Shown in pieces: positions 1,787 to 59,557 of a stretch of DNA of 64,000 bases. The position numbers were made by a program, and so were the translations under genes. The notes under the pieces were generated by a model that did not search any database, had not been told where the DNA came from, and saw only the letters and a program-made list of their open reading frames with translations. Every line of letters starts with the position of its first letter. Positions within the stretch are counted from its first letter, which is position 1. This stretch comes from a virus, in IMG/VR virus record IMGVR_UViG_3300036791_001355, positions 1-64,000 of that record, one strand, 5' to 3'.

Positions 1787-1804
1787 CGACGCGAAGGCGC
1801 GTCT
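1787..1804. repeat. GACGCG hairpin before the cement-like gene
   Basis: GACGCG and CGCGTC arms surround a short AAGG-type loop, overlapping the stop of the scaffold-like gene and about 29 bases upstream of the cement-like ATG. It belongs to the same family as 832-849. Confidence 0.55.
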
Positions 1805-2898
1805 TAGAAGGGGTTGGGCTGGGTGTTGATGCGCCGCACCCGGAAGCTTGGCATGCGGAACTGGTCGAGCATGGCGCTGACCGGCCCGACGAACTCGGAG
1901 ATGCGCCGCCCGGTACGGTCGGGCTTGATGACCTCGCGCAGCATCGGCTCCGCCCCCGGCTCGACGCGGTAGGCCGCGCTGACCGCGTCCTTGCGGATTT
2001 CCGGCGCGGCAATCTTCAGCGCCGCCACCGGCAGCTGCCTGAGATCGACGCCCTTCCACTTGTCGGAGTAGCGCTGGAAGTGCCGCGCGTTGCGGCGCAC
2101 GTAGGAGAGCAGGCTCTCACCGTGCATCGGCCGTGACACGCGCTCGCCATGAGCCATGGCGGGCTCGCTCCACAGCTGCTGCTCCTCGGCCAGACGCTCG
2201 ATTTCCTCGTCGGTGGCGCCCCGCTCCAGGGCCTCGATGCGGCGCCGCAGGCTGCTGCTGTCGGCCCGGGTGTCGCGGCGAGCATCGCGGCGATCATCGC
2301 GGCGGTCGTCATCGTCGTCCGAGCGCCCTTCGTCGCCACCCTCTTCCTCGTCGTCGTCCTTGCGGTCGGCCGCCAGCGGCGTCGGCTTCTCCTTATCGCT
2401 AGGCGGTTCCTTCTCTTCCTCCTTGTGCCACGGCTCCTCCTTCTCCTCGCCGGCCCATTCCTCGATGTCCTTCTCCTTGTCCTTGCGGCCGGAATCCTTG
2501 AACGGCGCCGCCTGCTTGCCCTTGAAGTTCTCGATGCCGGCGTCGCGGCGGCCCCGGTCCTTGCGGCCCCGGTCCTTCATCGACACGCCCCGGTCGCCCG
2601 CGTCACGGCGGGCATCGCGGCGGTCATCGTCATCGTCGTCTGACCGCGCCTCCTCCTCCTTCTTCTCTTTGTCTTCTCCTTCCTCCTCGGCATCGTCCTT
2701 GCGGTCGTCATCATCGTCATCGCTGCGGGCATCACGGCGGTCATCGTCATCGTCCTGCTTGCCGCCGCCCTGTCCGAACAGCGCGTCCAGACGTCGTCCG
2801 ATGGCCGCGTGGGCATCTTTCAGGGCCTGCAACTCCCTGTCCTTGGTCTCTTTTTCACCAGCGGGTGGGGTCGCCGCCCGCATTCCTTCTCCAGCCAT
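1804..2898 (-). CDS. Charged low-complexity head protein, probable scaffold or internal protein
   Basis: The frame is open further upstream, but the ATG at 2898 is preferred because AGGAGGAG precedes it and the upstream part is translated repeat DNA. The 364-residue protein has an extreme composition: the middle (about residues 35-230) is runs of Asp, Glu, Arg and Lys, with repeated DDDDDRRDARR-type blocks. The last 110 residues are ordinary sequence and resemble a C-terminal region seen near DUF2213 proteins in related phages (LSYVRRNARHFQRYSDKWKG, REVIKPDRTGRRISEFVG). Position between the DUF2213 protein and the capsid suggests a scaffold. That role is inferred; the charged repeats could also bind DNA or vary in length between relatives. 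Confidence 0.6.
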   Translation of the reverse strand: MAGEGMRAATPPAGEKETKDRELQALKDAHAAIGRRLDALFGQGGGKQDDDDDRRDARSDDDDDDRKDDAEEEGEDKEKKEEEARSDDDDDDRRDARRDAGDRGVSMKDRGRKDRGRRDAGIENFKGKQAAPFKDSGRKDKEKDIEEWAGEEKEEPWHKEEEKEPPSDKEKPTPLAADRKDDDEEEGGDEGRSDDDDDRRDDRRDARRDTRADSSSLRRRIEALERGATDEEIERLAEEQQLWSEPAMAHGERVSRPMHGESLLSYVRRNARHFQRYSDKWKGVDLRQLPVAALKIAAPEIRKDAVSAAYRVEPGAEPMLREVIKPDRTGRRISEFVGPVSAMLDQFRMPSFRVRRINTQPNPF

Positions 2899-2914
2899 GA
2901 CGGCTCCTCCTGCT

Positions 2915-2955
2915 AAGACGCGTAGGCGCACCGAAGGTGCGCGACATCGCGTCGC
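2915..2955. repeat. Nested palindromes upstream of the scaffold-like gene
   Basis: An outer GACGCG / CGCGTC pair encloses an inner GCGCACC-GAA-GGTGCGC hairpin. The outer pair is the family found at 832, 1787, 3086 and 9244. The inner one resembles the two ACGCACCG hairpins inside the polyvalent gene. It looks like one element inserted into another. Confidence 0.5.
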
Positions 2956-3056
2956 CCTATGCCCGCGCGTGATGAACCGCCGGGAGGCGGGGCCACTCCC
3001 GGTGTCGGTGGTGTCTCGGTTGCTCGAAATTGCGCAAAAATGCGCAGGGGTTTTGA

Positions 3057-4253
3057 TCAGTCCGGTCGGGAGCGAGACTCCCGGAGACGCGACTTCGCGT
3101 CGACCGAGCGACCTATCGGCCCGATCAGCTGCTCGACCTCGGCCAGCCAGGGCCACGCGAGTGGCCCATTCGCCCTCGGCTCAGGCGCCGAATGGGCCAC
3201 CACGCTGTCAGTTCGCGCCGCTGGGGCGGGCAACTCGATCTCGCCATCGGCCGGCTCGGGATCGCCGATGGCAATGCCGGTAGGCGAGCCGTCCTTGTCC
3301 CACACGCCCAGTTCACAGATGGCGAGGTGATCCAGCAGCGACGGCTCGCCCTCCACCAAGAGATGCTTGCCGCCCGCCAGCTGGCGCGTCTCATTGACGC
3401 TGGGATCACGGAAAATGACCGCCGGGCTGGTCGAGAGCCGGTGGCTGCGCATCACCTCCGCCGCGCGCTGGTCGTAGATCTTGCCGATGCCCCACACTTC
3501 GTCGCCCTCGATGTAGGCAAACACGATGCTGCCGATGACCCGGTTGGTGTACTCCTCGGTGTTCAGTTCGTCGGTGGGCGGGTGCTCGATGATGACCGGC
3601 AGCCCGGCGCAGCGGGCCAGGAACTCGGCGTTGAGATAAATCTCCGGGGGCCGCCAGACATACTCCTCCAACTCGGGCCGGTAGCTCACCCCGGTGCCGG
3701 TGATGCGCAAGGCGAAGAGCCAGATATTCTCGTATTGCTGCGGGCTGCCGAACTCGCCCGAGGCGATGGCGCGGGCGATGTCCAACTCGTTCATGTGCAG
3801 GCGGTCCAGCGCCAGCCGTACGCCGGGATGCAGCGGCTGCGGCGGCGAGCCGGGAGAAGCCCAGACCCAGTCGCTCAACTCGCCGTCGCCGTGGCTGAGA
3901 TCGGGCTCGAACTGCGTCTCGACATGGGCCATGAAGGTGGAATAATCGACGCCCATCAGCATGTTGCGGATGAGCAGGGAGACCGCGCCGTGGGCGGTGG
4001 CGCCCAACTCCTCGGCCACCTCGCGCATGGCCGCCTCGTCGGCCTGCTCGTCGTGCTCGATCTCGCCGCCGGGGAGTTCCCAGGTGTCGCGGTCGCGGTG
4101 GCGCACGAACAGCACGCGGTCGCCGTCGTGGCCCCGGTAGAGGATCAGCAGGCCGGCGCCGTGCAGGATACGGCTGGGCGGGGCTTCATCAGCAGCGAAG
4201 ACTGAATGGGGCTGGGCGTCGTCCAGCCGGATGGCTGGCGAGAGCAGGCGCAT
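3057..4253 (-). CDS. Nudix hydrolase fused to DUF2213 (probable prohead-protease-like) protein
   Basis: 398 residues with two parts. Residues about 30-150 form a Nudix domain with a complete Nudix box at 62-84 (Gly, five residues, Glu, then REVAEELG); such enzymes hydrolyse nucleoside diphosphates linked to another group. Residues about 155-300 match DUF2213, found before capsid genes; His224 (VIIEHPPT) and Ser274 or Ser276 (RLSTSPAV) are candidates for a protease pair by analogy with assemblin-like prohead proteases, which is inference. The C-terminal 60 residues are encoded by palindromic repeat DNA (3066-3210). The ATG at 4253 follows the preceding stop closely, and no strong ribosome site was seen. 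The substrate is unknown. Confidence 0.75.
   Translation of the reverse strand: MRLLSPAIRLDDAQPHSVFAADEAPPSRILHGAGLLILYRGHDGDRVLFVRHRDRDTWELPGGEIEHDEQADEAAMREVAEELGATAHGAVSLLIRNMLMGVDYSTFMAHVETQFEPDLSHGDGELSDWVWASPGSPPQPLHPGVRLALDRLHMNELDIARAIASGEFGSPQQYENIWLFALRITGTGVSYRPELEEYVWRPPEIYLNAEFLARCAGLPVIIEHPPTDELNTEEYTNRVIGSIVFAYIEGDEVWGIGKIYDQRAAEVMRSHRLSTSPAVIFRDPSVNETRQLAGGKHLLVEGEPSLLDHLAICELGVWDKDGSPTGIAIGDPEPADGEIELPAPAARTDSVVAHSAPEPRANGPLAWPWLAEVEQLIGPIGRSVDAKSRLRESRSRPD
3066..3116. repeat. TCGCTC element with a GACGCG hairpin inserted in it
   Basis: The reverse form of the dispersed element (GGGAGCGAGACTCCC and later CGAGCGACC) is split by a GACGCG-ACTT-CGCGTC hairpin at 3086-3101. It encodes the last residues of the Nudix-DUF2213 protein. 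Nesting suggests the hairpin arrived second. Confidence 0.5.
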
Positions 4254-4656: not shown

Positions 4657-7600
4657 TTATCCTACCAATGCCTTGATGTGAGTCCGCGTGCCGTCGTGGT
4701 AGATTTCGTAGACTTCGGTGGAGACCCCATGCGGCAGGATCACTTCCCGCTCGTGGTGGCCGACTTGGCCGGCAATGCCCAGCACCTTCTGCCCCTTCTT
4801 GACGGCAAAGTGCCACCAGACATTCTCGTGCTCCTTGTAGCCGGGTTTCGGGCCGATGGAGGCAGAGGTGAAGCCGGTGCGCATGTAGTGGTAGGTGCCC
4901 ACGCCTTTGCCGAGCGCCTGCCTGATTGCCTTGATCTGGTCGTCGTCCATGTGTTCGCCACGGACCAAGTTGATATCCTGGGTGATCGCCACGTCGGGAT
5001 CACGGAACAGCGCCCGCATGGCATCAATCTTGCCCAAGGCCTCTGGTGTCGCTGACTCATGGCCGCGCTGCACGCCGTTGATTTTTTTGTAACCGCCGCC
5101 GCCGTAGGACTGGATCGCTTCCGCATCCTTGCTGTGGGACACCTTCTGCCAGAACCCTGGCTGGAGTGACGGCACGATGTCGTAGGATTCCTGCGAACTC
5201 GTGCTGGCAGGATTCGCCGCCTCCGCCTCGGTCTTGAGCGCGTAGTGCAGGTCGGGGCTGTCCCTGGCTTGCAGCACCTGGGCGTTGGCGGGCGCCGTCA
5301 GCGAGCCGTGCTTGGCGGTCTTGGGCGCGGCGGCCTTGGCCTTCGCGGCTAGGGTTCCCGGCTTCGGCCCCGCTGGCTTGGGGGCGGGCGCGGCCGGCTT
5401 GGCCGCCGAGGGCGGTGCCTCGCCCTTCAGCGCGGCGATCCACTCCTCGCCGAAGCTCTTGGTGAAAGAGCCGGTCAGCTTGGGGTTATCCAGCACCGCC
5501 TCAATGGCGGTGATCTTCTCTGCGTCTGGCTTATCCGAGGTGGCGGCGGCATAGACCGCCTGCTGGCCCTTGGAACTGGCGTGCGGCTGTGGTCCCAGGA
5601 CCGGCGGCGGCTTGCCCTCGATGTCGGCGATGGCCACCGCCACGGCGTGCTTCTCCGCCGGCTCGGTCATGGTGTTCATCAACTCGCCCAGCGACTTGGT
5701 CGCCGTTGCCTTGGCCTTGGGACCGGCCTCCTTGGCCATGGTGGAAACGAACTTGAGCTTTTCCCCCAGGGACATCTGAGCTTTGACGTAGTTCGGAATC
5801 ATGCCGGCGGCGGTGTCGTCTTCCTGCGCCTTGCTCTGCGGCTTGGTGTCCGCCGGCTTCTTCTCGCCCTTCAGCGCCTCGATCAGCTTGGCGCCGTACT
5901 CCTTGCCCGCCGTCGGCCACGCCTGGGCGTACTGCTCCAGAGTCTTGATCTTCGACGCGAGTGGCGCATCACTGGTAGCGACCTGCAGCATGTTCTTCTG
6001 CACGCTGCTGCCGGGGACCGGCAGCTGCGGTAGTGTGGCCGCCGTGGCCTGCTCGGCCGCCTGGGTCGGGGCGTCGCTGATCGCCGCCAGCAGCTTCTCG
6101 CCGTAGGCCTTGTCCGCCGCATCGGTGGCGTGGGCGATGTCGTGCTTGAGTTGCTTGACCTTGGTCTCCAGCTTCCACTGGCCGAAGGTGGCGGACTCGT
6201 AGAGTTCCTTCTGCGTCGCTCCTTGCGGCTTGGGCACCCCGGACACCGCCAGCAACAGTTGCGCGGCATATTCCTTGTTGCTGGGATCGGTCATCTCGGT
6301 GCCGAGCTTCTTGAGCGCGGCGATCTTTTCCGTCGTGGTGGTCCAGGGATTGACCGCGTAACCAAGCAGATCCTGCTGGCCGTAGCTCTGGTTTAGTGGG
6401 TCCGGCAGTTCCGGCCCGGCGGGTTCGGCTTCCTCGGACGCGGCCTTCGCTGGCTTCTTCTTCTCGCCGGCCGCCATCTCCAGCACGCTTAGCCAATCCT
6501 CGGCGTAGGTCTTGGCGGACGGGTCGACCAGCCCCTGGGCAATGGCATCCTTCAGCCACGCCAGCTGCTGCTCGACGGGCAGATCGCCGCTGACCACGTC
6601 GCTGATTTCGGACTCGCCGTAGGTCTTCTTTTCGGGAGCAGCCTGCGCGACCTCCTTCGGCTTGGCCCCCTGCTGCGCTTCCAGCGCCGCGATCACCGTC
6701 TGGCTGTAGTCCCATGTCGGGCTGGCCTTGTTCAGGGTGCCCTTGGCAACCTGCATATCCACGTAGGTGTTGATCGCGTTGATCTTCCCTTCCACCGTCA
6801 TGCTGGGGTGCTCGGCCAGCCCCTTGATGCTTTTGCCGATGACCGAACCGCCGACCAGCCCGGGCGGGTCCGGTACAACCGGGGCGCCCTTCTCGCCCTT
6901 TAGCTCGGCGAGCTTGCCCTCCACGAACTGCGTGTTGGCTGACCCCAGCGGCTTCTTCAGCAAGCCTTCCAAGTAAGCGACCTTTTTTTCTGCCGACGGC
7001 AGATGGTCGACCTGTTGCGTCACCGCCTTGGCGAAAGTCACGTCGGGACCAGCGCCGAAGATGCCGCCTGCCTCCTTGGCTTCCGGTTCCTCGGGCGGCG
7101 CTTCCGCCTCGGCCGCCATTGCCTCCATCTCGGCTGCGCTCGGCGGCGCCGCCTCGGGCGCACCTCCCTTCTCCTTCTTCTTAGGCTTCCACTTGGTGAA
7201 CGTGGCCTTGCCCAGGCTGCCCGCCCCCAACCCCAGCTGGTTCTCGATGTCGGCCAGCAGCACGTTGGCGTAGTTGGCCCAGGAAGAGGAAGACTTGGTC
7301 GCCGAGTAAGCCTTCACGGCGTCGGCCAGCTGGTTCAGTTCCTGATTGGAAAGAGCCTCGCCCTTCTCCAGCGCCTTCTCGACCACGCCGACGATCTTCT
7401 TGGTCGCCGACGCCGCCCCCAGCGCAGGCGATGACGATGGCGTCACCTTGCCGCCGCCACCACCGCCCGAGGTGAACTGCCCGCCGCCCTCGGCCCCGGC
7501 CGGTACACGCGGATGGTCGGCCTCGCTCCAGGCATCGGCCCGGCGAATGAAGTCCTTGTGCGCCTGCTCCGCCGTCCAGGCGTCCTTCTTGGCCTCGGAC

Positions 7601-9228
7601 AGTCCGGCCCGCTTGGCGATATCGTACTTGCGGGCAATCAGCTTGGCGGCCAGATCGGCCCGCTGCTCCGCCGTGCCCGGCCCCTGGCTCTCCACCAGTT
7701 CGCGGATGGTGTCATCGGGCACCGCCACCACCTTCTTGGCGGACTCGCGCAGCTGCTCCTGGCTCATCGAGCCGTAGATGGCGTGCGCCTGGGTGTTGCT
7801 CGGGCTGCGCAGGCTCTCCCATTCGCCCGCCTCTTTACCGAAGGCGTTGCCCTTGGGACCGCCCTGGGCGCGGAAGATCATCGCCCCGCCCGCGTCCAAG
7901 GTGGTCATGTCGCCGTCAACGAGGCCCTGGTTGTCGTATTCCAGCCCGGCCGCGTCCCAGTTGGCCAGCCACGCATGGGTGGCAAAGTTCTCCTGCGCCG
8001 CCTGCTTCTGCTCGGCGCTGTGGCGGTTGATGTTCTTGACGCCCTCTTTCCACTTGGTGGCGGTGCCGAGCTTGCCGTCGCCGATGTCGATGGGCTCGGC
8101 CGACAGGATCGGCGAGCCCGCCGCCTCGTACAGGCGCGAGGCGAGAAGCTCGTTCTTGGCGTGGGCTAACGACTTGGAATACTTGACATAGTATTTCTGG
8201 CCTTCCGGCGAGGTGAAGCGCCCGCCGGGATTGCTGCCCAGCTGCCCGCCGGTCTTGGTCATGCCCGCCAGCGCCAGTTGCCCGCCCGGCTTCCCGGGAG
8301 CAGCCTGCGCGACCTTCTCCTCCTTGGGCGGGTGGTCGCTCGGAGTCTCGCTCCCGGGCTTGAGAAACTTGGTGACCATCTTGCGGTCAACCGGGGCGTT
8401 GAGGTGGTCCTCCAGTTCCTCGACCGGCGCCAGGGTAACGCTGGAGGCCTCCTCGCCGTGATCCTCGGGCGTGCCGCCCACCCGGCGAGCGAAGTAGTAG
8501 CGGGCGTTGCTGGTGGAGCGCTCGACATCGCCGGCAAAGCCGGTCAGTTCCACCTTCAGCCCGGTTTCCTCGTAGGCCTCCTTGATGGCGGTGGCCCTGA
8601 GCGACAGGCCAGGGTCTTGGGTGCCCTTGGGGAAGGTCGCCTTGTAGCCGCCAAAACCCCGCTTGGGATGCATCACCCAGACGCTGCCGTCGGGCTCCTT
8701 GATGATCACCCCGGCGCCCTGCGCGAAGCCCTCGGGCAGGGGCGGTGGGGGTGGGGCCTCGATCTTGGGGCCGCTGTCGGCCAGCTTCTGCCAGCCACCC
8801 CGGGTCTGCGGCGGTGTCCACGAGGCAAAGGCGACGCCATGCAGAGCCTTGGGCGCGGCACTACCCTTCTTGCCGAAGGTCTGCGACTTCTTGGCAGCCT
8901 TGGGTGCCTCCGGTGCGGCGCCCCCGCCACCAGCGCCTGCGGTGAACTTGCCGCCCTCGTTGCGCGGATGCTCGGCTTCCTTGAAGTCGGAGTCCCCACG
9001 CACCGTCTTCGGTGCGTCTTGCCGCCCCGGCAGCAGGTTGAAGCGCCGGGCCTGGATCAGGTAGTCGATCTGGCGCGAGATGTCGGCCAGCGACTGGGCG
9101 ATATCCTCCAGGCCTGCCTCGTCCCCACGCACCGTCTTCGGTGCGTCCTTGCGCGCGCCATGGCGTACCTGCGGTTCCAGAAAGCGGGCGACGGCGTCAC
9201 GCCATGCCCAGGGAGCGCCGTCGTCCAT
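4657..9228 (-). CDS. Giant polyvalent protein: Nudix, kinase-like, helical repeats, ADP-ribosyltransferase
   Basis: 1,523 residues. In order: an N-terminal segment; a Nudix-like domain about 165-290 whose box (FPKGTQDPGLSL, KEAYEETGL) lacks the usual first Glu; a HipA-like kinase-type domain about 335-545 with Lys349, the loop NWDAAGLEYDNQG (423-435) and LDAGG (444-448); eight or nine degenerate helical repeats of 50-60 residues about 610-1270; a Pro/Ala linker; and an ADP-ribosyltransferase domain about 1350-1523 with Arg1423 (LVRGEH), the FTSAS motif (1453) and Glu1493-x-Glu1495. This fits the polyvalent protein class described in phages and conjugative elements, whose enzymatic parts are thought to be delivered with the DNA to act on the host. 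Its place in the head operon agrees. Targets are unknown. Confidence 0.85.
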   Translation of the reverse strand: MDDGAPWAWRDAVARFLEPQVRHGARKDAPKTVRGDEAGLEDIAQSLADISRQIDYLIQARRFNLLPGRQDAPKTVRGDSDFKEAEHPRNEGGKFTAGAGGGGAAPEAPKAAKKSQTFGKKGSAAPKALHGVAFASWTPPQTRGGWQKLADSGPKIEAPPPPPLPEGFAQGAGVIIKEPDGSVWVMHPKRGFGGYKATFPKGTQDPGLSLRATAIKEAYEETGLKVELTGFAGDVERSTSNARYYFARRVGGTPEDHGEEASSVTLAPVEELEDHLNAPVDRKMVTKFLKPGSETPSDHPPKEEKVAQAAPGKPGGQLALAGMTKTGGQLGSNPGGRFTSPEGQKYYVKYSKSLAHAKNELLASRLYEAAGSPILSAEPIDIGDGKLGTATKWKEGVKNINRHSAEQKQAAQENFATHAWLANWDAAGLEYDNQGLVDGDMTTLDAGGAMIFRAQGGPKGNAFGKEAGEWESLRSPSNTQAHAIYGSMSQEQLRESAKKVVAVPDDTIRELVESQGPGTAEQRADLAAKLIARKYDIAKRAGLSEAKKDAWTAEQAHKDFIRRADAWSEADHPRVPAGAEGGGQFTSGGGGGGKVTPSSSPALGAASATKKIVGVVEKALEKGEALSNQELNQLADAVKAYSATKSSSSWANYANVLLADIENQLGLGAGSLGKATFTKWKPKKKEKGGAPEAAPPSAAEMEAMAAEAEAPPEEPEAKEAGGIFGAGPDVTFAKAVTQQVDHLPSAEKKVAYLEGLLKKPLGSANTQFVEGKLAELKGEKGAPVVPDPPGLVGGSVIGKSIKGLAEHPSMTVEGKINAINTYVDMQVAKGTLNKASPTWDYSQTVIAALEAQQGAKPKEVAQAAPEKKTYGESEISDVVSGDLPVEQQLAWLKDAIAQGLVDPSAKTYAEDWLSVLEMAAGEKKKPAKAASEEAEPAGPELPDPLNQSYGQQDLLGYAVNPWTTTTEKIAALKKLGTEMTDPSNKEYAAQLLLAVSGVPKPQGATQKELYESATFGQWKLETKVKQLKHDIAHATDAADKAYGEKLLAAISDAPTQAAEQATAATLPQLPVPGSSVQKNMLQVATSDAPLASKIKTLEQYAQAWPTAGKEYGAKLIEALKGEKKPADTKPQSKAQEDDTAAGMIPNYVKAQMSLGEKLKFVSTMAKEAGPKAKATATKSLGELMNTMTEPAEKHAVAVAIADIEGKPPPVLGPQPHASSKGQQAVYAAATSDKPDAEKITAIEAVLDNPKLTGSFTKSFGEEWIAALKGEAPPSAAKPAAPAPKPAGPKPGTLAAKAKAAAPKTAKHGSLTAPANAQVLQARDSPDLHYALKTEAEAANPASTSSQESYDIVPSLQPGFWQKVSHSKDAEAIQSYGGGGYKKINGVQRGHESATPEALGKIDAMRALFRDPDVAITQDINLVRGEHMDDDQIKAIRQALGKGVGTYHYMRTGFTSASIGPKPGYKEHENVWWHFAVKKGQKVLGIAGQVGHHEREVILPHGVSTEVYEIYHDGTRTHIKALVG
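8334..8356. repeat. TCGCTC dispersed element, in frame inside the polyvalent gene
   Basis: A 23-base copy of the dispersed element lies in the linker between the Nudix and kinase-like domains and is translated as part of PGSETPSDHPP. It marks a tolerated insertion in an unstructured linker. Confidence 0.55.
8998..9017. repeat. ACGCACCG hairpin, copy 1, inside the polyvalent gene
   Basis: Perfect inverted repeat ACGCACCG-TCTT-CGGTGCGT in coding sequence. The surrounding 27 bases are identical to copy 2, and both are translated as DAPKTVRGD. Confidence 0.65.
9127..9146. repeat. ACGCACCG hairpin, copy 2, inside the polyvalent gene
   Basis: Second copy, 129 bases from copy 1 and in the same reading frame, so the protein carries DAPKTVRGD at residues 28-36 and 71-79. 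Confidence 0.65.
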
Positions 9229-9243
9229 TGAGGCCTCCCCTCA

Positions 9244-9354: not shown

Positions 9355-9690
9355 ATGAACGACCATCCTGACCTGTTCGCCCTGTTCGACCTGCCCGCCG
9401 GCATCGCCCGCCGCGACGAAGGCATGGCGCGGGTTGCCGACCACAACCCGAACTGGACTGCCGAGGCGCTGCGCATCATCGCCACCCTGCCGCGCGGCTG
9501 GACCGGCCTGCCGGAAGACTGGCGCCCGATGGTCGAGGCCCGCATCGGCCCGCCCACCAGTTCCTTTGCCTATGGCCCGCTGACCAAGACCGCCAGACAG
9601 ATCGGCCTCGTCCGCCTGACCGGGCGCCGCCTGCCGATGCGCCGCCGCACCTCCAATGGCCGCATGACCGACGAATACGAGCGCCTCTAG
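9355..9690 (+). CDS. Hypothetical protein in a plus-strand cassette
   Basis: 111 residues, unknown function. An ATG at 9343 is in frame, but 9355 has GGGGGA at good spacing. The N-terminal half is acidic and the C-terminal half very basic (RRLPMRRRTSNGRM), suggesting nucleic-acid contact. It is transcribed against the flanking head genes, has its own promoter, and its stop overlaps the stop of the gpF-like gene. Confidence 0.65.
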   Translation: MNDHPDLFALFDLPAGIARRDEGMARVADHNPNWTAEALRIIATLPRGWTGLPEDWRPMVEARIGPPTSSFAYGPLTKTARQIGLVRLTGRRLPMRRRTSNGRMTDEYERL

Positions 9691-11318
9691 GCCTTGGCGC
9701 GTACCAGGGTCAGGGCGTCGTTGCCCGCCGCCGTCAGCATGCTCTCGGGCAACTCACGCAGGTGATAGAGGTAGGTATAATAACACCTACAGTTGTGCGT
9801 AACGATTCCATTGGCTATATACCAGCCGCTACTGGTCTGTAGATTGAACACATGCCCCGTCCAGCGCCGCTGATCGACCTTGATGATGCGCGTCACGCGT
9901 ACGAAGCGGGAGAGAGCATTCTCTCGCTGTCCCGTCGGCTGGGAGCGTCGTGCCGATATCTCACTTACAGCCTGGAACAGGCTGGCGTCACGCTCCGCAA
10001 CGGCAGTGAGGCCAGCGTATTGCGGATGGCCCGCGCAGGTGCCGAGGGCCGCGCCAAGCTGATCGCCGCCGCCCATGCCGCCCGTCGCGGCAGTAAGGCG
10101 TCCGAAGTCGAACTGATCCGCCGCGCCAGCCGCAAGCCCCGCCTGCACGGGTTCGGTGAAGACCACGTGCTCACCGCGCTGCATGCCGTCGGCATTGCCG
10201 CCGAAGCGCAGCGGCCGGTCGGTCCATACAACGTCGATATCGCTTTCGCTGCCGTCGCCGTGGAACTGCTTACGCTGCCCACCGCGCACCTCCGTGACCC
10301 CAAGTTCGAACAGCGCGCCGAATATTTGCGCAATGTTGGTTACTGTGTGGTCTTGGTGACTTTCAGATGGAGATACCCGGATGATCTCACCGGCAACCTC
10401 GATGAGGTCATCGCCTTCTTGCAAGGCGCCAATAGCGACCCAGCCGTCAGGCGTCAGGACTGGATGATTCGGTGTGGCGCGCAGCGTTTTGCCCGTGGCC
10501 GTAATCACCTTGGTCAGCTGACCGCTGTACCAACGCCGGTACGCTACTTCCACACCGTCAGCGAATGGAATCTGCGTCGTGCCGGGTAAGCAGTACACTT
10601 CCTCGCCCGGCTGCGTGATCTGGTCGGTGTAGCCGGCCCGCCCGGCCTTCATCAGGCGCTGCTGCAAGGCCCAGTTGCCCCGGATGGCATAGACCCAGTC
10701 GGCGCCCTTGTAGCGGGCGTCGCGGTCGCGGTGATCGGGCCGGAAATCGTAGTGCACCTGCCTGAAGTGACTGCGCCACAGGGCGGCGATGGCGCCGCCG
10801 TCGGTGGCCAGGATGCTGTTGATCGCCGACACCAGCTTGTGGCCCTGGTCGATCAGCACCCGCCGCTCGCGGAAACTCTGCCCGGCCAGTTCCTTGCGCA
10901 CGTCGTTCTTGGTCTCGACCTTGTCGACCTTGGCGCCGCCGACCGGGATCGAGGTGGCCCAGCCCTGAAAGCGCCGCAGCGTGTCGGCGATGGTCTGCTG
11001 GCGGTTCAGCTTGATGAGGTTGGCCGAGGCCAGGATGCGCCGGTCTAGCTCGGCCCGCAGCTTCGGCTTGACCAGTTCCAGGGTGAAGCGAGAGACGCCC
11101 GGGTGGTGGCGCAGGATCAGGCCCCGGTTGATCAGCCGCTCATAGGTGCCCGCCAACACCCGGCGCAGCTGCTCGTCCAGCACCGCCTCGGAGACCATCT
11201 GCTCCAGCGCCGACTGGCGGATGGTCTCGACCCAGTATTGCAACCGCTCCTCGCTGTCGTAGCCGTGCTCGGCGAGATCGGCGACGGCGGCCGAGACGGT
11301 TTCGAAGAACGTCGCCAT
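9687..11318 (-). CDS. gpF-like head morphogenesis protein interrupted by an intein
   Basis: 543 codons. Residues 1-242 plus 510-543 form a 276-residue protein of the Mu gpF-like head morphogenesis / minor head family, which acts at the portal vertex; the conserved C-terminal element CRCYYTYLYHLREL is present. Between Tyr242 and Cys510 lies a 267-residue intein starting with Cys243 and ending His508-Asn509, so splicing would rebuild EEVY-CRCYY. The ATG at 11318 lies just beyond the stop of the 80-residue gene upstream. Gene order (portal, gpF-like, polyvalent, DUF2213) is typical. The protein needs splicing to restore its conserved end. Confidence 0.88.
   Translation of the reverse strand: MATFFETVSAAVADLAEHGYDSEERLQYWVETIRQSALEQMVSEAVLDEQLRRVLAGTYERLINRGLILRHHPGVSRFTLELVKPKLRAELDRRILASANLIKLNRQQTIADTLRRFQGWATSIPVGGAKVDKVETKNDVRKELAGQSFRERRVLIDQGHKLVSAINSILATDGGAIAALWRSHFRQVHYDFRPDHRDRDARYKGADWVYAIRGNWALQQRLMKAGRAGYTDQITQPGEEVYCLPGTTQIPFADGVEVAYRRWYSGQLTKVITATGKTLRATPNHPVLTPDGWVAIGALQEGDDLIEVAGEIIRVSPSESHQDHTVTNIAQIFGALFELGVTEVRGGQRKQFHGDGSESDIDVVWTDRPLRFGGNADGMQRGEHVVFTEPVQAGLAAGAADQFDFGRLTAATGGMGGGDQLGAALGTCAGHPQYAGLTAVAERDASLFQAVSEISARRSQPTGQRENALSRFVRVTRIIKVDQRRWTGHVFNLQTSSGWYIANGIVTHNCRCYYTYLYHLRELPESMLTAAGNDALTLVRAKA
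9792..10592 (-). mobile_element. Intein (267 residues) without an in-frame endonuclease
   Basis: Splicing features are complete: Cys1 (CLPGTTQI), the block B TxxH as Thr282-Pro-Asn-His285, the C-terminal block VFNLQTSSGWYIANGIVTHN, penultimate His, terminal Asn and Cys at +1 of the extein. Residues between the blocks (about 313-470) contain no LAGLIDADG or HNH motif. Instead the opposite strand encodes a free-standing EDxHD endonuclease covering residues 244-489. The insertion point lies in the most conserved part of the host protein, as is usual for inteins. Confidence 0.93.
9852..10589 (+). CDS. EDxHD / Vsr-like homing endonuclease encoded antisense within the intein
   Basis: 245 residues. 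The N-terminal half holds a helix-turn-helix-like region (AYEAGESILSLSRRLG, then EQAGVTLRNGSEAS). The C-terminal half matches the EDxHD homing-endonuclease family, relatives of Vsr and I-Bth0305I: Glu103, then QRPVGPYNVDIAFAAVAVEL with Asp129 and Glu138, then His146 and Asp149, and RAEYLRNVGYCVVLV. These enzymes cut DNA to spread their host element. The TAA stop is at 10587-10589 and the intein Cys1 codon at 10590-10592, so the gene lies wholly within the intein. Each codon is the exact reverse complement of an intein codon. No strong ribosome site precedes the ATG; an upstream stop at 9840 limits other starts. Confidence 0.85.
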   Translation: MPRPAPLIDLDDARHAYEAGESILSLSRRLGASCRYLTYSLEQAGVTLRNGSEASVLRMARAGAEGRAKLIAAAHAARRGSKASEVELIRRASRKPRLHGFGEDHVLTALHAVGIAAEAQRPVGPYNVDIAFAAVAVELLTLPTAHLRDPKFEQRAEYLRNVGYCVVLVTFRWRYPDDLTGNLDEVIAFLQGANSDPAVRRQDWMIRCGAQRFARGRNHLGQLTAVPTPVRYFHTVSEWNLRRAG

Positions 11319-11814: not shown

Positions 11815-12176
11815 GGCCAGCCTCCCATCAGCGTCCTTGGCCCGCTACGCCCGGTGCACGGCAGCTGCCATGCCTGCCGACACGGGGGACACAGGGCTAT
11901 GTGTGTCGCCGCGAACGCTGATGGAAGCTCGTACGGAATGCCAGTGCCTGCCATCCAGTGCCAATGGGGTGTTACGCTCCTATGAACTAGGTGCTAGGTG
12001 GGTGGGCGTATCGCGCGTAACACAGCTGCCATCCAGTACCAGTGCGCCACCATGCGCCGGCATACCGCCAAAAATAATCTTGACTTCGGAAAAGTCACAC
12101 TCGTAGCGTCGTTTCGTCCGACACACTGTGTGCGAGACGTTTGCCGAAACTGTTCGGCAAAAAAGGATACGACGCG
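11815..12176. promoter_or_regulatory. 362-base intergenic control region with repeats and dyads
   Basis: No convincing gene is seen. The region holds a direct repeat (CTGCCATCCAGT at 11948 and 12026), a possible plus-strand promoter TTGACT (12075) with a weak -10, a GACTT...AAGTC dyad overlapping that -35, and two palindromes: CACAC-T-GTGTG (12122-12132) and TTTGCCGAA-ACTG-TTCGGCAAA (12140-12161). The second ends 15 bases before the ParB-like ATG. They could be operator sites or a 5' leader hairpin. Confidence 0.5.
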
Positions 12177-13196
12177 ATGGCAAAAACAAATCGCAGCCCG
12201 CAAGCGACAATACCGCTGATTTCGCAGGGCGAACAGATGGTCGCGGCCATCCAGAATACCGCGAAAACCGCCACCCCCGAAGATCATGCTTTGCTTGCTG
12301 ACTTGCAGGCAAAATCCCGCAATCATGGCACTGCAGACACTTACGGGATGGAATTGGTTACTGCCACTCCCGGCTTTTGCGCATTGCTATTTCTCGATCA
12401 GGACCACAACCGCCCCTGGGACCCCAACTGGTCCAACGAAATCGGCCACCTGATGCGCAATGGAAAGTGGAAGCCAAACACCGATTCCTACGCGCTCTAC
12501 GGCGATGACGGAAAGCTCGGCAACGGCCAACATCGCACTGCTGCCCAGGCAGTTACCGGCTTCACATTCAAGGTTCCGTTCTTCCTGGGATTAAAGAAAG
12601 CCGACATCGGCGCAATCGACTGCGGCAAGCCGCGCACCGGAGTTGATCTCGCTGCCCTGTCCGGTATCAGCCGGGCCAAAGAAAAGGCAGGTATCCTCGC
12701 GGGCGTCTGGGGATGCCTTCAGGCTGCTGGGGAACTGGTCCGGCAGTATCGCTCACCGGACGATATCGCCATCGAAATCCAGCAGCACGACAAGATGCTC
12801 GCGCGCTCGTTGGAGATTGGTTACGTCTCTGTTGAGCATGCCACGACTCCGGTCCTGCCTCCCACGTTAGCGGCAAAACTGGCTGGGCTGCTCCTCTTCA
12901 AAGGCTGGCCGGAACGCCGCATGATCGACCGGCTGGACGAACTCCAGTGCGCTGATTTTGCTTCTGACAAAGCCCCGCTCGCAGTGGCCCGGCAGTACAT
13001 CGCCTCGAACCGCAAGCCGGACGACACGCTCACGCCGCAGAAAGAACTGGCGGTGGCAGTGAAGGGATTCGTGCTCGCTGAGCAGGGTGCCGTCACCGCC
13101 AAGAAGGCCGAGCTGACCGTGGCCCGCCAGAGATTCCCGGACGCCTCCTATCCTGGCGTGGTACCGGCCGCTCCGACTGTCCAAGCCGCAGACTGA
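12177..13196 (+). CDS. ParB/sulfiredoxin-fold-like protein
   Basis: 339 residues. The pattern MRNGKWKPNTDSYALYG then GKLGNGQHRTAAQAV (GNGQHR at 115-120) and AIDCGKPRTGVD matches phage and plasmid proteins of the ParB-like nuclease fold that carry a GQHR signature. Such proteins bind nucleotides or DNA; the substrate here is unknown. An in-frame ATG lies at 12141, but 12177 is chosen because AAGGA lies at good spacing and the earlier ATG is inside a palindrome. It leads a plus-strand trio and uses less GC-biased codons than the head genes, which suggests a later acquisition. Confidence 0.7.
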   Translation: MAKTNRSPQATIPLISQGEQMVAAIQNTAKTATPEDHALLADLQAKSRNHGTADTYGMELVTATPGFCALLFLDQDHNRPWDPNWSNEIGHLMRNGKWKPNTDSYALYGDDGKLGNGQHRTAAQAVTGFTFKVPFFLGLKKADIGAIDCGKPRTGVDLAALSGISRAKEKAGILAGVWGCLQAAGELVRQYRSPDDIAIEIQQHDKMLARSLEIGYVSVEHATTPVLPPTLAAKLAGLLLFKGWPERRMIDRLDELQCADFASDKAPLAVARQYIASNRKPDDTLTPQKELAVAVKGFVLAEQGAVTAKKAELTVARQRFPDASYPGVVPAAPTVQAAD

Positions 13197-13212
13197 TCCC
13201 GTTCGTGGATAT

Positions 13213-13242
13213 GGGCCGTCCATGTCGCATTGATGGCGGCCC
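13213..13242 (+). promoter_or_regulatory. Stable hairpin in the gap before the 13273 gene
   Basis: GGGCCG and CCAT pair with ATGG and CGGCCC, leaving one bulged T and a nine-base loop. It ends about 30 bases before the next ATG, in a 76-base gap. It may separate expression of the two genes; no T-run follows, so termination is not implied. Confidence 0.45.
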
Positions 13243-13272
13243 GGTCTGTGTCTTCGCGATGCGGGGGGGATC

Positions 13273-14201: not shown

Positions 14202-14507
14202 ATGGACACCCGCAACCGGATCACCATTCACGACGTGGCCGCTGACCTGGGCCTCGAACTGAGCCACGCCCAGGCATGGCGCATCGGCGATGCCGTCAAG
14301 CGCATCCACCGCTGGGATACCGGCGAGCTGCCGGTCAAGGACAACCGCACCAAGAAGGCCGGCACCGGCAGCCACTGCTTCGCGCTCTATCCCGACACCG
14401 CCGAATGGCGCGAGCGCATCGCCCGCCAGATCCGCACCGTCAGGGCCGAGGAGCCAACCACGCAGACCGACCTGTTTGCTACTCCCCCATCCCCGTCTTC
14501 TGCTTGA
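14202..14507 (+). CDS. Small HTH-like protein
   Basis: 101 residues, beginning ITIHDVAADLGLELSHAQAW, which looks like a helix-turn-helix, then a basic region with KAGTGSHCFALYP. AGGAGAAGCCG precedes the ATG. Its 3' end overlaps the end of the portal gene on the other strand by 29 bases. Probably a DNA-binding accessory protein; the function is inferred only from shape. Confidence 0.55.
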   Translation: MDTRNRITIHDVAADLGLELSHAQAWRIGDAVKRIHRWDTGELPVKDNRTKKAGTGSHCFALYPDTAEWRERIARQIRTVRAEEPTTQTDLFATPPSPSSA

Positions 14508-16056
14508 ACGGCATCACCTTGGGCTGCTTCTGACCACCGCCGCCGGGAGGCCCACCACCACCGCCAGGAGGGCCGCCAGGGCCGCCACCCGCACCACCCG
14601 GCCCACCACCACCGCCCATGCCCATGCCGCCCTGCATGGCCTGCTCCTGCTGCTCCTGCTGCTTGGCGCCAAACTCCGCCAAGGCCTCGGTGTCGAGCAC
14701 CAGCGGCACGCCGAACAGCAACTCGGTGTCGGCGATGTTGTCGCAGGCCCAGTCCAGCACGCGCGCCTTGTTCTCCGGGTCCATGTTGGGCAGGAACGTC
14801 TCCACCACGCCGATGATGGCCCGCAGCTTGACGTCGTCGGTCTTGACCCGCTCGCTCTCGGGCTCGATCAAGAGACTGGGCCACGAGGCGATGAAATCAT
14901 TCTGCCACCGGCTCATGGCCGCCTCGTACGTCATCTTGCCGTACTGGTCCGGGTAGGTCTGCTGCATGCGCTGGAAGAACTCCCGGTTCCACGCCCGGTG
15001 CTGCACGATGCGGTCGAGGAACTCGTAGGTCGGGTGCATCTCCTCGCGGAAGCGCTCGATATACCGCGCGATGTTCTTGGCATCCTCCGAGCCCTCGCCG
15101 AAGCCGGACACCAAAGTCTCGTTCTCCAGCAGCACCGCCGGCATGTCCGCCGCCGTGGCGAGGTTCTTGAGGATGTTGGTGCGCGCGAACGTCCCCGCCC
15201 CGTCGATGTTCTGCATGTTCAGCGTCTCGATGTTTTCCTCCACGTCGATGCTGAGCACGTTGTCGGTCTGCGCCTGCTTCAAGAGCGAGCGCTTCATGCT
15301 GGCGATGCCCACCATGACGCGGTCAATGATGCTGCCGGGGCTCTTCATCTTGGCGATCAGCACGCCCGCCTTGCGGGTGATCATGTCGTCGGTGCGCATC
15401 GATTGGATGAAGCTCTTGAGCGGGAACAGCGAGCGCTGATACACGCTCCGCCCGACATAGCCGAAGGCCGACGAGGTGAAAGCGATGTAGACCGGCTCCT
15501 CGTTCATGATCACGCACACCCGCGAGCGGTGATAGGTCTGCCCCTGGGTGGTGATCACCGTGGTCTTCTGGAACTCGGGCGAGTTGGGATCTTGGCTGAG
15601 AATCAGCGACCCCGCCGTATTGAGCGGATCGAGCACGTTGAAATAGAGTTCTTCGTCGGCATAGCGCTCGGGCGGGATCACCTCGGTGGAGGGGATGCCC
15701 ACGGCGCCGACGACGATGCTGGCGATGCCGTAGGCGCGAGCGAGACGGTGGCCGCTGTGGATGATGCGGTCGGCGTGAATCGCCCCCCACTGGCGCTCGA
15801 AGGCTTCGTGGACGTCGGGCGGCGCGCCCGCCACCTCGATCTTGCGTTTCTGCGACTGCGCCAGGGTGATCGGCGCCTCCACCATCTTCGCCCCCAGCGG
15901 GTGGTAGAGCAGGATGGTCTTGCACAGTTGGTAGCTGGGATCGGAGCCGGGCACGATGTCGTCGGCGGTGAGCATCTCTAAGAGCGCCGAACCCATGCTG
16001 GAGGTGCTGAGCGTGAGCATGGCGCCGGTCGGCTCGGGGCCTGAACTGCCTGACAT
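14479..16056 (-). CDS. Portal protein, DUF1073 family
   Basis: 525 residues. DUF1073 proteins form the portal ring through which DNA enters the head. The alpha/beta core (PLGAKMVEAPITLAQSQKRK, ADRIIHSGHRLARAYGIASI) and the helical wing rich in Asn and Glu fit, and the C-terminus is a Gly/Pro/Met-rich tail of low complexity. GAGGAG precedes the ATG. Some databases name this family after the anti-CBASS protein Acb1 because of fusions; no Acb1-like domain is visible here. The neighbours (terminase upstream, gpF-like downstream) confirm the assignment. Confidence 0.88.
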   Translation of the reverse strand: MSGSSGPEPTGAMLTLSTSSMGSALLEMLTADDIVPGSDPSYQLCKTILLYHPLGAKMVEAPITLAQSQKRKIEVAGAPPDVHEAFERQWGAIHADRIIHSGHRLARAYGIASIVVGAVGIPSTEVIPPERYADEELYFNVLDPLNTAGSLILSQDPNSPEFQKTTVITTQGQTYHRSRVCVIMNEEPVYIAFTSSAFGYVGRSVYQRSLFPLKSFIQSMRTDDMITRKAGVLIAKMKSPGSIIDRVMVGIASMKRSLLKQAQTDNVLSIDVEENIETLNMQNIDGAGTFARTNILKNLATAADMPAVLLENETLVSGFGEGSEDAKNIARYIERFREEMHPTYEFLDRIVQHRAWNREFFQRMQQTYPDQYGKMTYEAAMSRWQNDFIASWPSLLIEPESERVKTDDVKLRAIIGVVETFLPNMDPENKARVLDWACDNIADTELLFGVPLVLDTEALAEFGAKQQEQQEQAMQGGMGMGGGGGPGGAGGGPGGPPGGGGGPPGGGGQKQPKVMPFKQKTGMGE

Positions 16057-18932: not shown

Positions 18933-20270
18933 TCAGAAGCCTTTGTTGTCGCCCAGCGCCATGGCCACGCCATAGGTGAAGCAGTCGAGCAGGTCATCGG
19001 CGCCTGAGTCCACGCCCACCCGATAGCCCACCACCTGGGCCAGCAGATGGTTCCGCGTCGTCGCCTTGTAGGTGATCACCCGGTCATAGGCGGGCTGGCT
19101 GATTTTCACCTTGCCCTGGTGCACGTAGCCGCTGACGTTGATGGCCCGCCCGTCCTTGCCCACCTTGGTCAGGTCGCTCTCGATAGGGTGCGCCCGCCAG
19201 CCGCGCCGCCGCGCCTGCTGCAGCAGGATAGTGCCGCTGTTCTTGTCCTCGATCCACGCCCCCAGGGCGCCCATGCGCGCCCGGCACTGCTTGGCCAGTT
19301 CCTCCATGCGCTGATAGATGCCCGGCAGCCACTGCTCCAGCAGGCTGCCCTCGATCTGCACAATGTCCCAGTCGAGGATGAGCAGCGGAATGCCGAAATG
19401 ACGTGACACGCCCCAGTAGATGACGGCGGTGCCGTCGTGCTCGCTGTGGTCCTTCACGGCGGTGTCGATGGTGACGAAGATGCCATCGCAGATGGCGGGG
19501 TAGGCGGGCGCCTTGTTGTCGACCAAGAGCGAGGTCTGGGCAAAGAAGGCCGCGCCCGACCAGTCGACGAACTTGGCCTCGTACTCCTGCTCGAACACCA
19601 GCGGGTGAGTGCGCGCGCGTAAGGCCTCGATCTCGTCCTGCGGCAAATAGGGGTTATTGGCCGAGGGCGCCCAGTACTCGACAAAGCCCCACTCCTCGGG
19701 CTCATTGCACAGGCGCCAGAAGAAGTTCTCGCTATCCAGCCCGTTGGTGTTGGAGGCGGCCAGCGCGGTGCCTTTGTAATCCAGCAGGGTCGGCTCGATG
19801 CTCTTGCGCCAGACATCGGTCATGAACGGCTTGCAGAAGGCCGCCTCGTCGACGATCACCTTGTGGTAGCGGCGGCTTCTGCCGGCGCGCTCGTTATCCA
19901 AGCTCCAGAAGTCAATCCTGCCCCCGGTCGTGGTGCGAATCACCCCGTCCATGCGGTTGGAGCGCAAGATGACCGGGCCGAGGCGCTCGACCACATCGGT
20001 GTAGGCCTCGGAGAGGAATTTATACTCCGGGGCAAACCAGCCGACGTACTCGCCGCGTATGGCGGCATCGCAGGCGATGGTCTCGCACAGCAGCGTCTTG
20101 CCCCAGCGCCGGCCGCAGCGGATCGCCTTGTGCCGCCCGGGCATGCGATAGGCCTTGAGTTGGTCGGCATGGAGCGTGGGCAGTTCCACCTCGACCTCGC
20201 GGGCACTGTCGGGGCCGCGCCTGGGCGGCAGGTGTACGCGCTGCTCACTCTGCGGGTGGGTCTGCTCCAT
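18933..20270 (-). CDS. terL: Large terminase subunit
   Basis: 445 residues. The ATPase domain has Walker A CGRRWGKT (52-59) and Walker B VIVDEA (138-143). The nuclease domain has acidic residues in TIDTAVKD (Asp269), IEDKNSG (about 341) and GADDLLDCF (near the end), as in RNase H-fold terminase nucleases. It drives DNA translocation into the prohead and cuts concatemers. The start overlaps the small terminase gene. The length is normal for the family. Confidence 0.95.
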   Translation of the reverse strand: MEQTHPQSEQRVHLPPRRGPDSAREVEVELPTLHADQLKAYRMPGRHKAIRCGRRWGKTLLCETIACDAAIRGEYVGWFAPEYKFLSEAYTDVVERLGPVILRSNRMDGVIRTTTGGRIDFWSLDNERAGRSRRYHKVIVDEAAFCKPFMTDVWRKSIEPTLLDYKGTALAASNTNGLDSENFFWRLCNEPEEWGFVEYWAPSANNPYLPQDEIEALRARTHPLVFEQEYEAKFVDWSGAAFFAQTSLLVDNKAPAYPAICDGIFVTIDTAVKDHSEHDGTAVIYWGVSRHFGIPLLILDWDIVQIEGSLLEQWLPGIYQRMEELAKQCRARMGALGAWIEDKNSGTILLQQARRRGWRAHPIESDLTKVGKDGRAINVSGYVHQGKVKISQPAYDRVITYKATTRNHLLAQVVGYRVGVDSGADDLLDCFTYGVAMALGDNKGF

Positions 20271-48597: not shown

Positions 48598-48600
48598 GGG

Positions 48601-52967: not shown

Positions 52968-52968
52968 G

Positions 52969-54156: not shown

Positions 54157-54165
54157 GACCGGTCC

Positions 54166-54561
54166 CTATGCCAACGTAATGACTAGCGATCCCACGGCGA
54201 TGACGAGGCTGTCACCCGAAGCCAGCGTGCGCGCCGTCGCCAAGGTGCCGTAGTAGAGCATGTTGCCCGCTGCCGCCGCCGTGGTGTCCCACACCTGAAT
54301 GCCGGTGATGGCCGCCGATGACAGCGCCGGACCGAAGGTCATGGCCGACGAGTTCGAGGCGCTGCCCGCAGGCGAGGAGGCGCCGGGGAACGGACAGGTG
54401 GCGCGGCTCAGCCCCGAGCCGGTGCCGATCTCCGATCCGGAGACGGAACTGGGCGCCCCCAGCGCCAACCCCACCGACCAGTTGGCCGGCCGCGTCGGGA
54501 TCGCCCCGCCGAGGCTCCAGTCCAGCATAGCCTTTTGCATGTACGCAGCGATCCCGGCCAT
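54166..54561 (-). CDS. Small tail protein
   Basis: 131 residues from the ATG at 54561, which overlaps the methyltransferase stop (TGATG). MAGIAAYMQKAMLDWSLGG then WSVGLALGAP is the pattern of small phage tail-fibre proteins. Beta-rich, without catalytic motif. It precedes spike copy 2. Confidence 0.65.
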   Translation of the reverse strand: MAGIAAYMQKAMLDWSLGGAIPTRPANWSVGLALGAPSSVSGSEIGTGSGLSRATCPFPGASSPAGSASNSSAMTFGPALSSAAITGIQVWDTTAAAAGNMLYYGTLATARTLASGDSLVIAVGSLVITLA

Positions 54562-58310: not shown

Positions 58311-58320
58311 GCAACGTCTC

Positions 58321-59556: not shown

Positions 59557-59557
59557 T

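What the first reader, a model, noticed from the sequence alone, without database searches (positions are those of the whole stretch)
4657..9228. Polyvalent protein with Nudix, kinase-like and ADP-ribosyltransferase domains in the head operon
One 1,523-residue protein joins three enzyme-type domains and a helical-repeat array. The ART triad (Arg1423, FTSAS, Glu1493-x-Glu1495) is complete. The Nudix box lacks its usual first Glu, which may alter activity. Position among head genes suggests the protein is packed in the capsid and injected. ART plus Nudix could act on host proteins and on ADP-ribose products, for example against NAD-based defences (inference).
Basis: partly seen in the sequence, partly recalled or inferred. 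Interest (0 to 1): 0.75.

Follow-up and report, generated by a model that had tools for sequence, protein, structure and literature searches.

The report
Phage head-cargo protein with three enzymes
This phage carries, among its capsid genes, one giant protein that joins a nucleotide-cleaving enzyme, a protein kinase of an undescribed family and an ADP-ribosylating enzyme; the same trio recurs in many unrelated phages and, apparently, in one plant-pathogen effector, so it looks like a mobile three-part kit for taking over cells.

Summary
The protein (1,523 aa) joins a Nudix domain, a CtkA/HipA-type kinase domain absent from Pfam and PHROGs as a family, four clear helical-hairpin repeats, and an Arg-Ser-Glu ART with VIP2/C3 fold. 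The 'missing' first Nudix Glu is normal for this subfamily; the metal-binding Glu residues are invariant. New result: the three domains form a recurrent module. Loci fetched by the kinase alone carry the ART in 26/30 and the Nudix in 18/30; loci fetched by the Nudix alone carry the ART in 34/35 and the kinase in 31/35. Among 16 phages with a related terminase, 0 have the kinase and 1 an ART. The gene sits in a variable cargo slot between MuF and the head-protease gene. Homologous domains in Yersinia phage fHe-Yen8-01 are annotated 'particle associated'. A Pseudomonas syringae-complex protein matching effector HopAG1 has the same trio. Most likely it is a virion-delivered host-takeover protein: ART and kinase modify host proteins, and an RppH-like Nudix processes ADP-ribose adducts or nucleotides. 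Delivery by this phage, substrates and order of action are untested.

The parts
4657..9228 (-). 1,523-residue Nudix-kinase-ART polyvalent protein (P0001)
9234..9240 (-). ribosome-binding site GGGGAGG upstream of the ATG
   Evidence: read from the sequence
8944..8985 (-). head-cargo motif copy 1 (FKEAEHPRNEGGKF, residues 82-95), before the Nudix domain
8347..8880 (-). Nudix domain with conserved N-terminal extension (residues 117-294); Nudix box residues 202-224
   Evidence: Pfam; family conservation
7582..8280 (-). CtkA/HipA/PI4K-type kinase domain (residues 317-549); conserved Lys349, Glu360, Asn423-Trp424-Asp425, Asp432-Asn433, Asp445-x-Gly-Gly
7474..7530 (-). head-cargo motif copy 2 (WSEADHPRVPAGAEGGGQF, residues 567-585), after the kinase domain; longer spacer than the scanned pattern allows, read by eye
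5845..6573 (-). helical-hairpin repeat region, four clear units (residues 886-1128)
4666..5229 (-). ADP-ribosyltransferase domain (residues 1334-1521) with Arg1423, Ser1455/1457, Glu1493-x-Glu1495
9687..11318 (-). MuF-type head protein, upstream flank of the cargo slot (contains an intein-like insert)
14479..16056 (-). portal protein
   Evidence: PF06381 2.3e-18, phrog_146
18933..20270 (-). terminase large subunit
3057..4253 (-). separate Nudix + DUF2213/head-maturation-protease-like gene, downstream flank of the cargo slot

Best explanation
The protein is late-made head cargo that is packaged in the capsid and enters the cell with the DNA. Its three enzymes form one functional module for taking over the host: the ART puts ADP-ribose on host protein(s), probably at arginine (ExE-type ART); the kinase phosphorylates host protein(s); and the RppH/Ap4A-like Nudix domain acts on the pyrophosphates that this chemistry or the host supplies, most likely ADP-ribose still attached to protein or RNA, trimming it to phosphoribose so that host hydrolases cannot undo the mark. 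The helical repeats and the HPR...GKF linkers are spacers or packaging elements. Shown here: the three folds, conserved catalytic residues, recurrent co-occurrence and common strand, location in a variable slot of the head cluster, and particle-associated annotation of homologues in another phage. Inferred: packaging in this phage, injection, substrates, and the order of action.
For: Folds. Catalytic residues conserved across 63-67 kinase, 52 Nudix and 65 ART domains. Module: kinase-anchored non-redundant loci with at least 5 kb on both sides carry ART in 26/30 and Nudix in 18/30; Nudix-anchored loci carry ART in 34/35 and kinase in 31/35; 126 of 127 loci have all detected domains on one strand. 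Control: 16 records (44-77 kb) with a related terminase have kinase 0/16 and PF03496 1/16. Domain distances correlate (r 0.67, 0.51, 0.49 in 50 loci; no permutation of 2,000 reaches them). Slot: the head block is syntenic in relatives, and the MuF-protease interval is empty or holds other cargo (topoisomerase IB, ART alone, a protein with a metallopeptidase-like HEFGH motif). Virion: ART+kinase gp129, gp130 and Nudix gp131 of Yersinia phage fHe-Yen8-01 are annotated 'phage particle associated'; a paper on other Yersinia phages uses that term for LC-MS/MS-detected proteins (PMC8309999). Nudix step: the subfamily matches RppH/Ap4A/MutT1 models, no ADP-ribose pyrophosphatase; published work found that Nudix ADP-ribose pyrophosphatases do not cleave protein-bound ADP-ribose whereas RppH and NudT16 do (PMC4680915); the Nudix domain lacks an ART in its locus in only 1 of 35 cases.
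Against: No experiment on this phage. The fHe-Yen8-01 statement is a depositor's annotation of split homologues in another phage. Conserved residues do not prove activity. Nudix substrates cannot be read from sequence. The kinase could act on a small molecule or lipid rather than protein (PI4K and CotH share the fold), and 9 of 30 well-flanked kinase loci have ART without the Nudix subfamily, so the Nudix is not indispensable. Co-occurrence does not prove a shared substrate.
Confidence: 0.6

Rival explanations
1. Counter-defence kit: the injected Nudix destroys free ADP-ribose-type signals or NAD-derived alarms of host defence, while ART and kinase act separately on other targets.
For: Iyer and co-workers propose head-packaged phage Nudix domains as counters to ADP-ribose signals (PMC9503650); the Nudix catalytic residues are intact.
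Against: The subfamily matches RppH, Ap4A and MutT1 models and no ADP-ribose pyrophosphatase model reached threshold; its near-constant linkage to an ART (34/35) suggests work on ART chemistry rather than on an independent signal.
Confidence: 0.2
2. RNA-directed takeover: the RppH-like Nudix decaps host or phage RNA and the ART attaches ADP-ribose or RNA to proteins, shifting gene expression early in infection.
For: Closest NCBIfam and PDB matches of the Nudix subfamily include RNA pyrophosphohydrolase RppH and Dcp2.
Against: Nudix substrate classes are not reliably read from sequence; no RNA-binding domain was recognised; the kinase has no obvious part in it.
Confidence: 0.12
3. Structural or assembly protein: the enzyme folds serve only head assembly or as inert internal proteins.
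For: Position between MuF and the head-protease gene; helical repeats and linkers typical of internal head proteins.
Against: Catalytic residues of all three enzymes are conserved; related phages with the same head block lack the protein altogether, so it is not needed for assembly.
Confidence: 0.05
4. The module is mainly a cell-directed toxin or effector gene that phages pick up and carry (as in the HopAG1-type protein), rather than a tool for infection.
For: A chromosomal Pseudomonas syringae-complex protein has ART-kinase-Nudix (HopAG1 literature).
Against: Phage copies sit among head genes in many lineages and homologues are annotated as virion components; 45 of 65 non-redundant Nudix-anchored viral loci hold the whole trio.
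Confidence: 0.08

Closest known systems
Polyvalent proteins of phages (Iyer et al. 2017, PMC5512222)
   Same: Large multidomain protein with several enzyme domains, encoded beside head genes; ART is a common component.
   Different: Their kinase group is defined by a conserved His and Asp and loss of the C-terminal lobe; this kinase is CtkA/HipA-like with an NWD...DN...DxGG pattern. The fixed Nudix-kinase-ART combination was not seen in the passages read.
Phage T4 Alt
   Same: R-S-E ADP-ribosyltransferase linked to the head; weak match to the Alt PHROG.
   Different: The ART core is nearest to VIP2/C3-type enzymes; here it is fused to Nudix, kinase and repeats.
HopAG1 type III effector of Pseudomonas syringae (PMC9963460, PMC4981494)
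   Same: ART at the N terminus and Nudix at the C terminus; the P. syringae-complex protein in L189 also has this kinase domain between them and its Nudix is 43% identical to the window's.
   Different: Different order (ART-kinase-Nudix), 719 aa, no repeats, encoded in a chromosome without recognised phage genes. The name HopAG1 for L189 is inferred from architecture and host group.
CtkA / HipA / PI4K-type kinases
   Same: Fold (Z 15.8 to about 11) and conserved Lys, Glu, Asp, Asn, Asp positions.
   Different: No significant PDB match by sequence profile; own family, linked to ART and Nudix; smaller than HipA.
RppH / Ap4A hydrolase / MutT1 Nudix enzymes
   Same: Nudix box and best profile matches.
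   Different: Own subfamily with a conserved N-terminal extension and Leu (usually) in place of the first Nudix Glu.

Membership tests
R-S-E ADP-ribosyltransferases (PF03496) | ART fold | tested here: met
   AF2 pLDDT 92; Z 18.2 to C3, 17.3 to VIP2; profile of homologues matches VIP2 chains at about 1e-31
R-S-E ADP-ribosyltransferases (PF03496) | catalytic Arg, S-x-S/T, ExE | tested here: met
   Arg1423, Ser1455/1457, Glu1493, Glu1495; full set in 53 of 65 domains, one clade with Lys/Cys variants
R-S-E ADP-ribosyltransferases (PF03496) | NAD-dependent transfer to arginine | not testable with these tools
   needs an enzyme assay
Nudix hydrolases (PF00293) | Nudix domain over curated cut-off | tested here: met
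   49.8 bits against 21.1
Nudix hydrolases (PF00293) | complete GX5EX7REUXEEXGU box | tested here: not met
   first Glu is Leu208 and Arg is Lys216; Glu217, Glu220, Glu221, Gly223 kept; both departures are shared by most of the subfamily. Whole-family membership rests on the Pfam score and the metal-binding Glu residues
Nudix ADP-ribose pyrophosphatases | match to ADP-ribose pyrophosphatase models | tested here: inconclusive
   no such NCBIfam or PDB match at the thresholds used; best are Deinococcus Nudix, MutT1, RppH, Ap4A hydrolase
CtkA/HipA/PI4K kinase superfamily | fold | tested here: met
   Z 15.8 to CtkA, 13.0 to PI4KII-alpha, about 11 to HipA/HipT
CtkA/HipA/PI4K kinase superfamily | conserved ATP and phosphotransfer residues | tested here: met
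   Lys349, Glu360, Asp425, Asn433, Asp445 at least 99% in 67 non-redundant domains; assignment of roles is inferred from pattern
HipA family proper (Pfam HipA_C / HipA_2) | Pfam score over curated cut-off | tested here: not met
   no hit for the window domain; 21 of 67 relatives hit HipA_C only weakly, best 1.1e-3
Polyvalent-protein kinases of Iyer 2017 | conserved His and Asp of the phosphotransfer site, insert between them, C-terminal lobe lost | tested here: not met
   no conserved His before the catalytic Asp; invariant Asn-Trp-Asp instead, and a C-terminal helical part is present
Polyvalent proteins | several enzyme domains in one protein in a virion-gene context | tested here: met
Polyvalent proteins | packaged in the virion and injected | not testable with these tools
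   only homologues in fHe-Yen8-01 are annotated as particle associated
T4 Alt | ART injected from the head that modifies RNA polymerase | not testable with these tools
   weak PHROG match only, 1.2e-3

The most novel reading that the evidence does not exclude
The trio is one mobile protein-modification machine working in sequence on the same target: the ART adds ADP-ribose, the RppH-like Nudix trims it to phosphoribose so that host hydrolases cannot reverse it, and the kinase adds a further phosphate on target or mark. Phages deliver it from the capsid and a plant pathogen delivers the same trio by type III secretion, so it would act on chemistry shared by bacterial and plant cells. The shared HPR...GKF motif would be a general tag of head cargo.
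Probability: 0.22. Interest if true: 0.92.

Novelty: new variant of a known kind. Interest (0 to 1): 0.74.

Why it matters
Phage-injected ADP-ribosyltransferases are known mainly from T4 Alt. A recurrent Nudix-kinase-ART module, with a kinase family missing from Pfam and PHROGs and found in only 19 of 50,697 cultured-phage records but in over 500 environmental viral stretches, points to a widespread takeover strategy that has escaped annotation. The shared architecture with a HopAG1-type plant-pathogen protein links phage virion cargo to a type III effector and gives a direct way to ask what the three activities do together. The cargo slot and the shared motif give handles on how phages choose what to pack with their DNA.

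Tried and rejected
Direct search of viral contigs with the whole protein found no relative; domain alignments were needed. Profile search of the kinase against PDB sequences found nothing meaningful; the fold search did. A reverse scan with the ART alignment was impossible, as no stretch was conserved enough. The idea that the missing Nudix Glu marks altered activity was rejected. The idea that the module is a fixed part of this phage lineage was rejected: absent from 16 related records, though an empty answer is only as good as the search, which did ring in the window's own record by protein and in many other loci by HMM. The chance that Nudix and ART merely occur often in head clusters was rejected by the same control. 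Weak Nudix hits in those controls come with scores of the generic kind, and the syntenic relatives carry the separate Nudix-protease gene. No paper in the library describes the trio or names fHe-Yen8-01. Truncated-looking copies of the HopAG1-type gene (L198, L206, L223) were not pursued.

Full report
WHAT IS THERE. The reported ORF is real but on the minus strand: ATG at 9228, stop at 4657, 1,523 residues, with a good ribosome site. Pfam finds Nudix at 170-287 (E 4.6e-13) and an ADP-ribosyltransferase at 1360-1511, just under the curated cut-off for the whole protein and above it for the domain alone. The region 317-549 has no family hit, but an alignment of 63 relatives gives a model with pLDDT 96 whose best solved matches are CtkA (Z 15.8, 215 residues, rmsd 3.9), PI4KII-alpha, CotH, HipT and HipA. 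The ART model (pLDDT 92) matches C3 and VIP2 enzymes at Z 17-18. Four helical-hairpin units lie at 886-1128.

CATALYTIC RESIDUES. ART: Arg1423, Ser1455/1457, Glu1493, Glu1495; the full set is kept in 53 of 65 domains, and a clade with Lys and Cys in place of Arg and Ser accounts for most exceptions. Nudix: Glu217, Glu220, Glu221 and Gly223 are invariant in 52 domains; the first Glu of the textbook box is Leu208 here and Leu, Ile, Met or Asp in most of the subfamily, so it is not a defect of this phage. Kinase: Lys349, Glu360, Asn423, Trp424, Asp425, Asn433, Asp445, Gly447 and Gly448 are 97-100% conserved in 67 non-redundant domains; which residue does what is inferred from the pattern.

THE THREE DOMAINS TRAVEL TOGETHER. 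A first tblastn against cultured phages showed the kinase and Nudix in adjacent genes of about 90-kb phages, next to an ART. The kinase alignment was then used to fetch viral contigs: 513 stretches encode relatives, 80 were kept. After removing near duplicates, 30 loci have at least 5 kb on both sides of the kinase: 26 carry an ART and 18 the Nudix subfamily. The reverse test, fetching by the Nudix subfamily alone, gives 35 such loci: 34 with ART, 31 with kinase, 30 with all three. All detected domains lie on one strand in 126 of 127 loci. Arrangements are shuffled: Nudix-kinase-ART, kinase-ART followed by Nudix, Nudix-kinase with separate ART, and loci with two kinase copies, each fused to one partner. 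Distances between loci correlate between the domains, as expected of parts inherited together, though shared phylogeny contributes. Limits: retrieval is by conserved peptide patterns, ORFs are stop to stop, many contigs are fragments, and the HMMs were trained partly on the kinase-selected loci.

CONTROL AND SLOT. Eighty loci were fetched by the window's terminase. In 16 long records (44-77 kb) there is no kinase and one PF03496 ART. The head block terminase-portal-MuF-Nudix/protease is syntenic. Between MuF and the protease gene some relatives have nothing, and others have topoisomerase IB (L230, Pfam 3.9e-23; L243 by similarity), a methyltransferase-like protein (L227, L231, by eye), a protein with a metallopeptidase-like HEFGH motif (L244), or an ART alone (L289, 5.2e-13). 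The window's gene occupies this variable slot, so it is accessory cargo and not a core part of the lineage.

A SHARED LINKER OR TAG. The motif [DE]xxHPR-x(1-9)-G[KRQE][FW], often followed by Gly/Ser runs, occurs in 69 of 221 ORFs with one of the three domains and in 23 of 8,925 other ORFs of the same viral loci. None of 82 copies falls inside a domain although domains make up 33% of those residues. The other carriers include portal C termini and the topoisomerase IB and ART cargo proteins. The window protein has one copy that fits the pattern, before the Nudix domain, and a longer variant after the kinase, read by eye. Its role (packaging signal, cleavage site or plain linker) is unknown.

IN VIRIONS? 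In Yersinia phage fHe-Yen8-01 the ART+kinase protein, its neighbour and the Nudix protein are all annotated 'particle associated'. No paper on this phage is in the library, but a paper on other Yersinia phages uses the term for proteins found by LC-MS/MS of particles (PMC8309999). This supports packaging of the homologous domains; it does not show it for this phage, and injection is inferred from T4 Alt and the polyvalent-protein literature.

OUTSIDE PHAGES. One genome per species gave 69 kinase loci: 8 with all three domains, 18 with ART, 6 with Nudix. In Rhodobacter the kinase is fused to a PTP/DSP phosphatase domain, which fits a real kinase. In the Pseudomonas syringae complex (L189) an intact 719-residue chromosomal protein has ART (HMM 4.7e-7 in a one-sequence search), kinase and Nudix. 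Published work found ART at the N terminus and Nudix at the C terminus of effector HopAG1 (PMC9963460), so this is probably HopAG1; no mention of its central kinase was found in the passages read.

MECHANISM. The Nudix subfamily resembles RppH, Ap4A hydrolase and MutT1, with no ADP-ribose pyrophosphatase match. Published work showed that Nudix ADP-ribose pyrophosphatases do not act on protein-bound ADP-ribose but RppH and NudT16 do, leaving phosphoribose (PMC4680915). With the near-constant presence of an ART where this Nudix occurs, the simplest joint scheme is ART first, Nudix second, with the kinase modifying host proteins in parallel or on the same target. That is inference; I give about 0.6 to the general takeover-cargo model and about 0.22 to the strict sequential version.

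NOVELTY. Multidomain injected proteins, phage ARTs and packaged Nudix domains are known. The fixed trio, its kinase family and the link to a HopAG1-type protein were not found described, within the limits of an open-licence library. I class it as a new variant of a known kind.

Noticed in passing
window 9792-10592 (-), inside MuF gene 9687-11318: Intein-like insert of 267 residues in the MuF protein (Cys243 to ...THN509, followed by CRC; Pfam Intein_splicing 1.6e-8, just under cut-off). Most relatives' MuF proteins align only over the first ~243 residues; L231 aligns over the full length.
   Followed up: partly
window 3057-4253 and 1804-3156 (-): A Nudix + DUF2213/protease-like gene and an overlapping ORF in another frame match the N- and C-terminal parts of one family (phrog_6216); several relatives have both in one ORF, so the window may have a split gene or a frameshift.
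   Followed up: partly
window 8992-9018 and 9121-9147: Exact 27-base direct repeat within the N-terminal coding part of the protein (encodes DAPKTVRGD twice).
   Followed up: no
window 12141-14178 (+): Plus-strand ORFs (one matching phrog_5931, 3.1e-14) lie between portal and MuF on the opposite strand to the head genes.
   Followed up: no
L164 7278-8681, L162 7356-8675 (Rhodobacter): The kinase domain is fused to a PTP/DSP-type phosphatase (PF22784, PF22785) in bacterial chromosomes, without the ART or Nudix found nearby.
   Followed up: partly
L189 7134-9290 (Pseudomonas cerasi): Chromosomal ART-kinase-Nudix protein, probably HopAG1, followed by a glycoside hydrolase family 5-like gene.
   Followed up: partly
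L050, L057, L059, L067, L134: Loci with two kinase copies: one protein Nudix+kinase, its neighbour kinase+ART.
   Followed up: no
ART domains of L050-L052, L056, L057, L062, L065, L067: A clade of these ARTs has Lys in place of the catalytic Arg and Cys in place of the first Ser, with both Glu residues kept.
   Followed up: no
window 47536-61045 (-): Tail-fibre genes in tandem (47536-54156; three adjacent proteins match the same fibre family phrog_4492) and a baseplate wedge protein (59558-61045), indicating a contractile-tailed phage.
   Followed up: no
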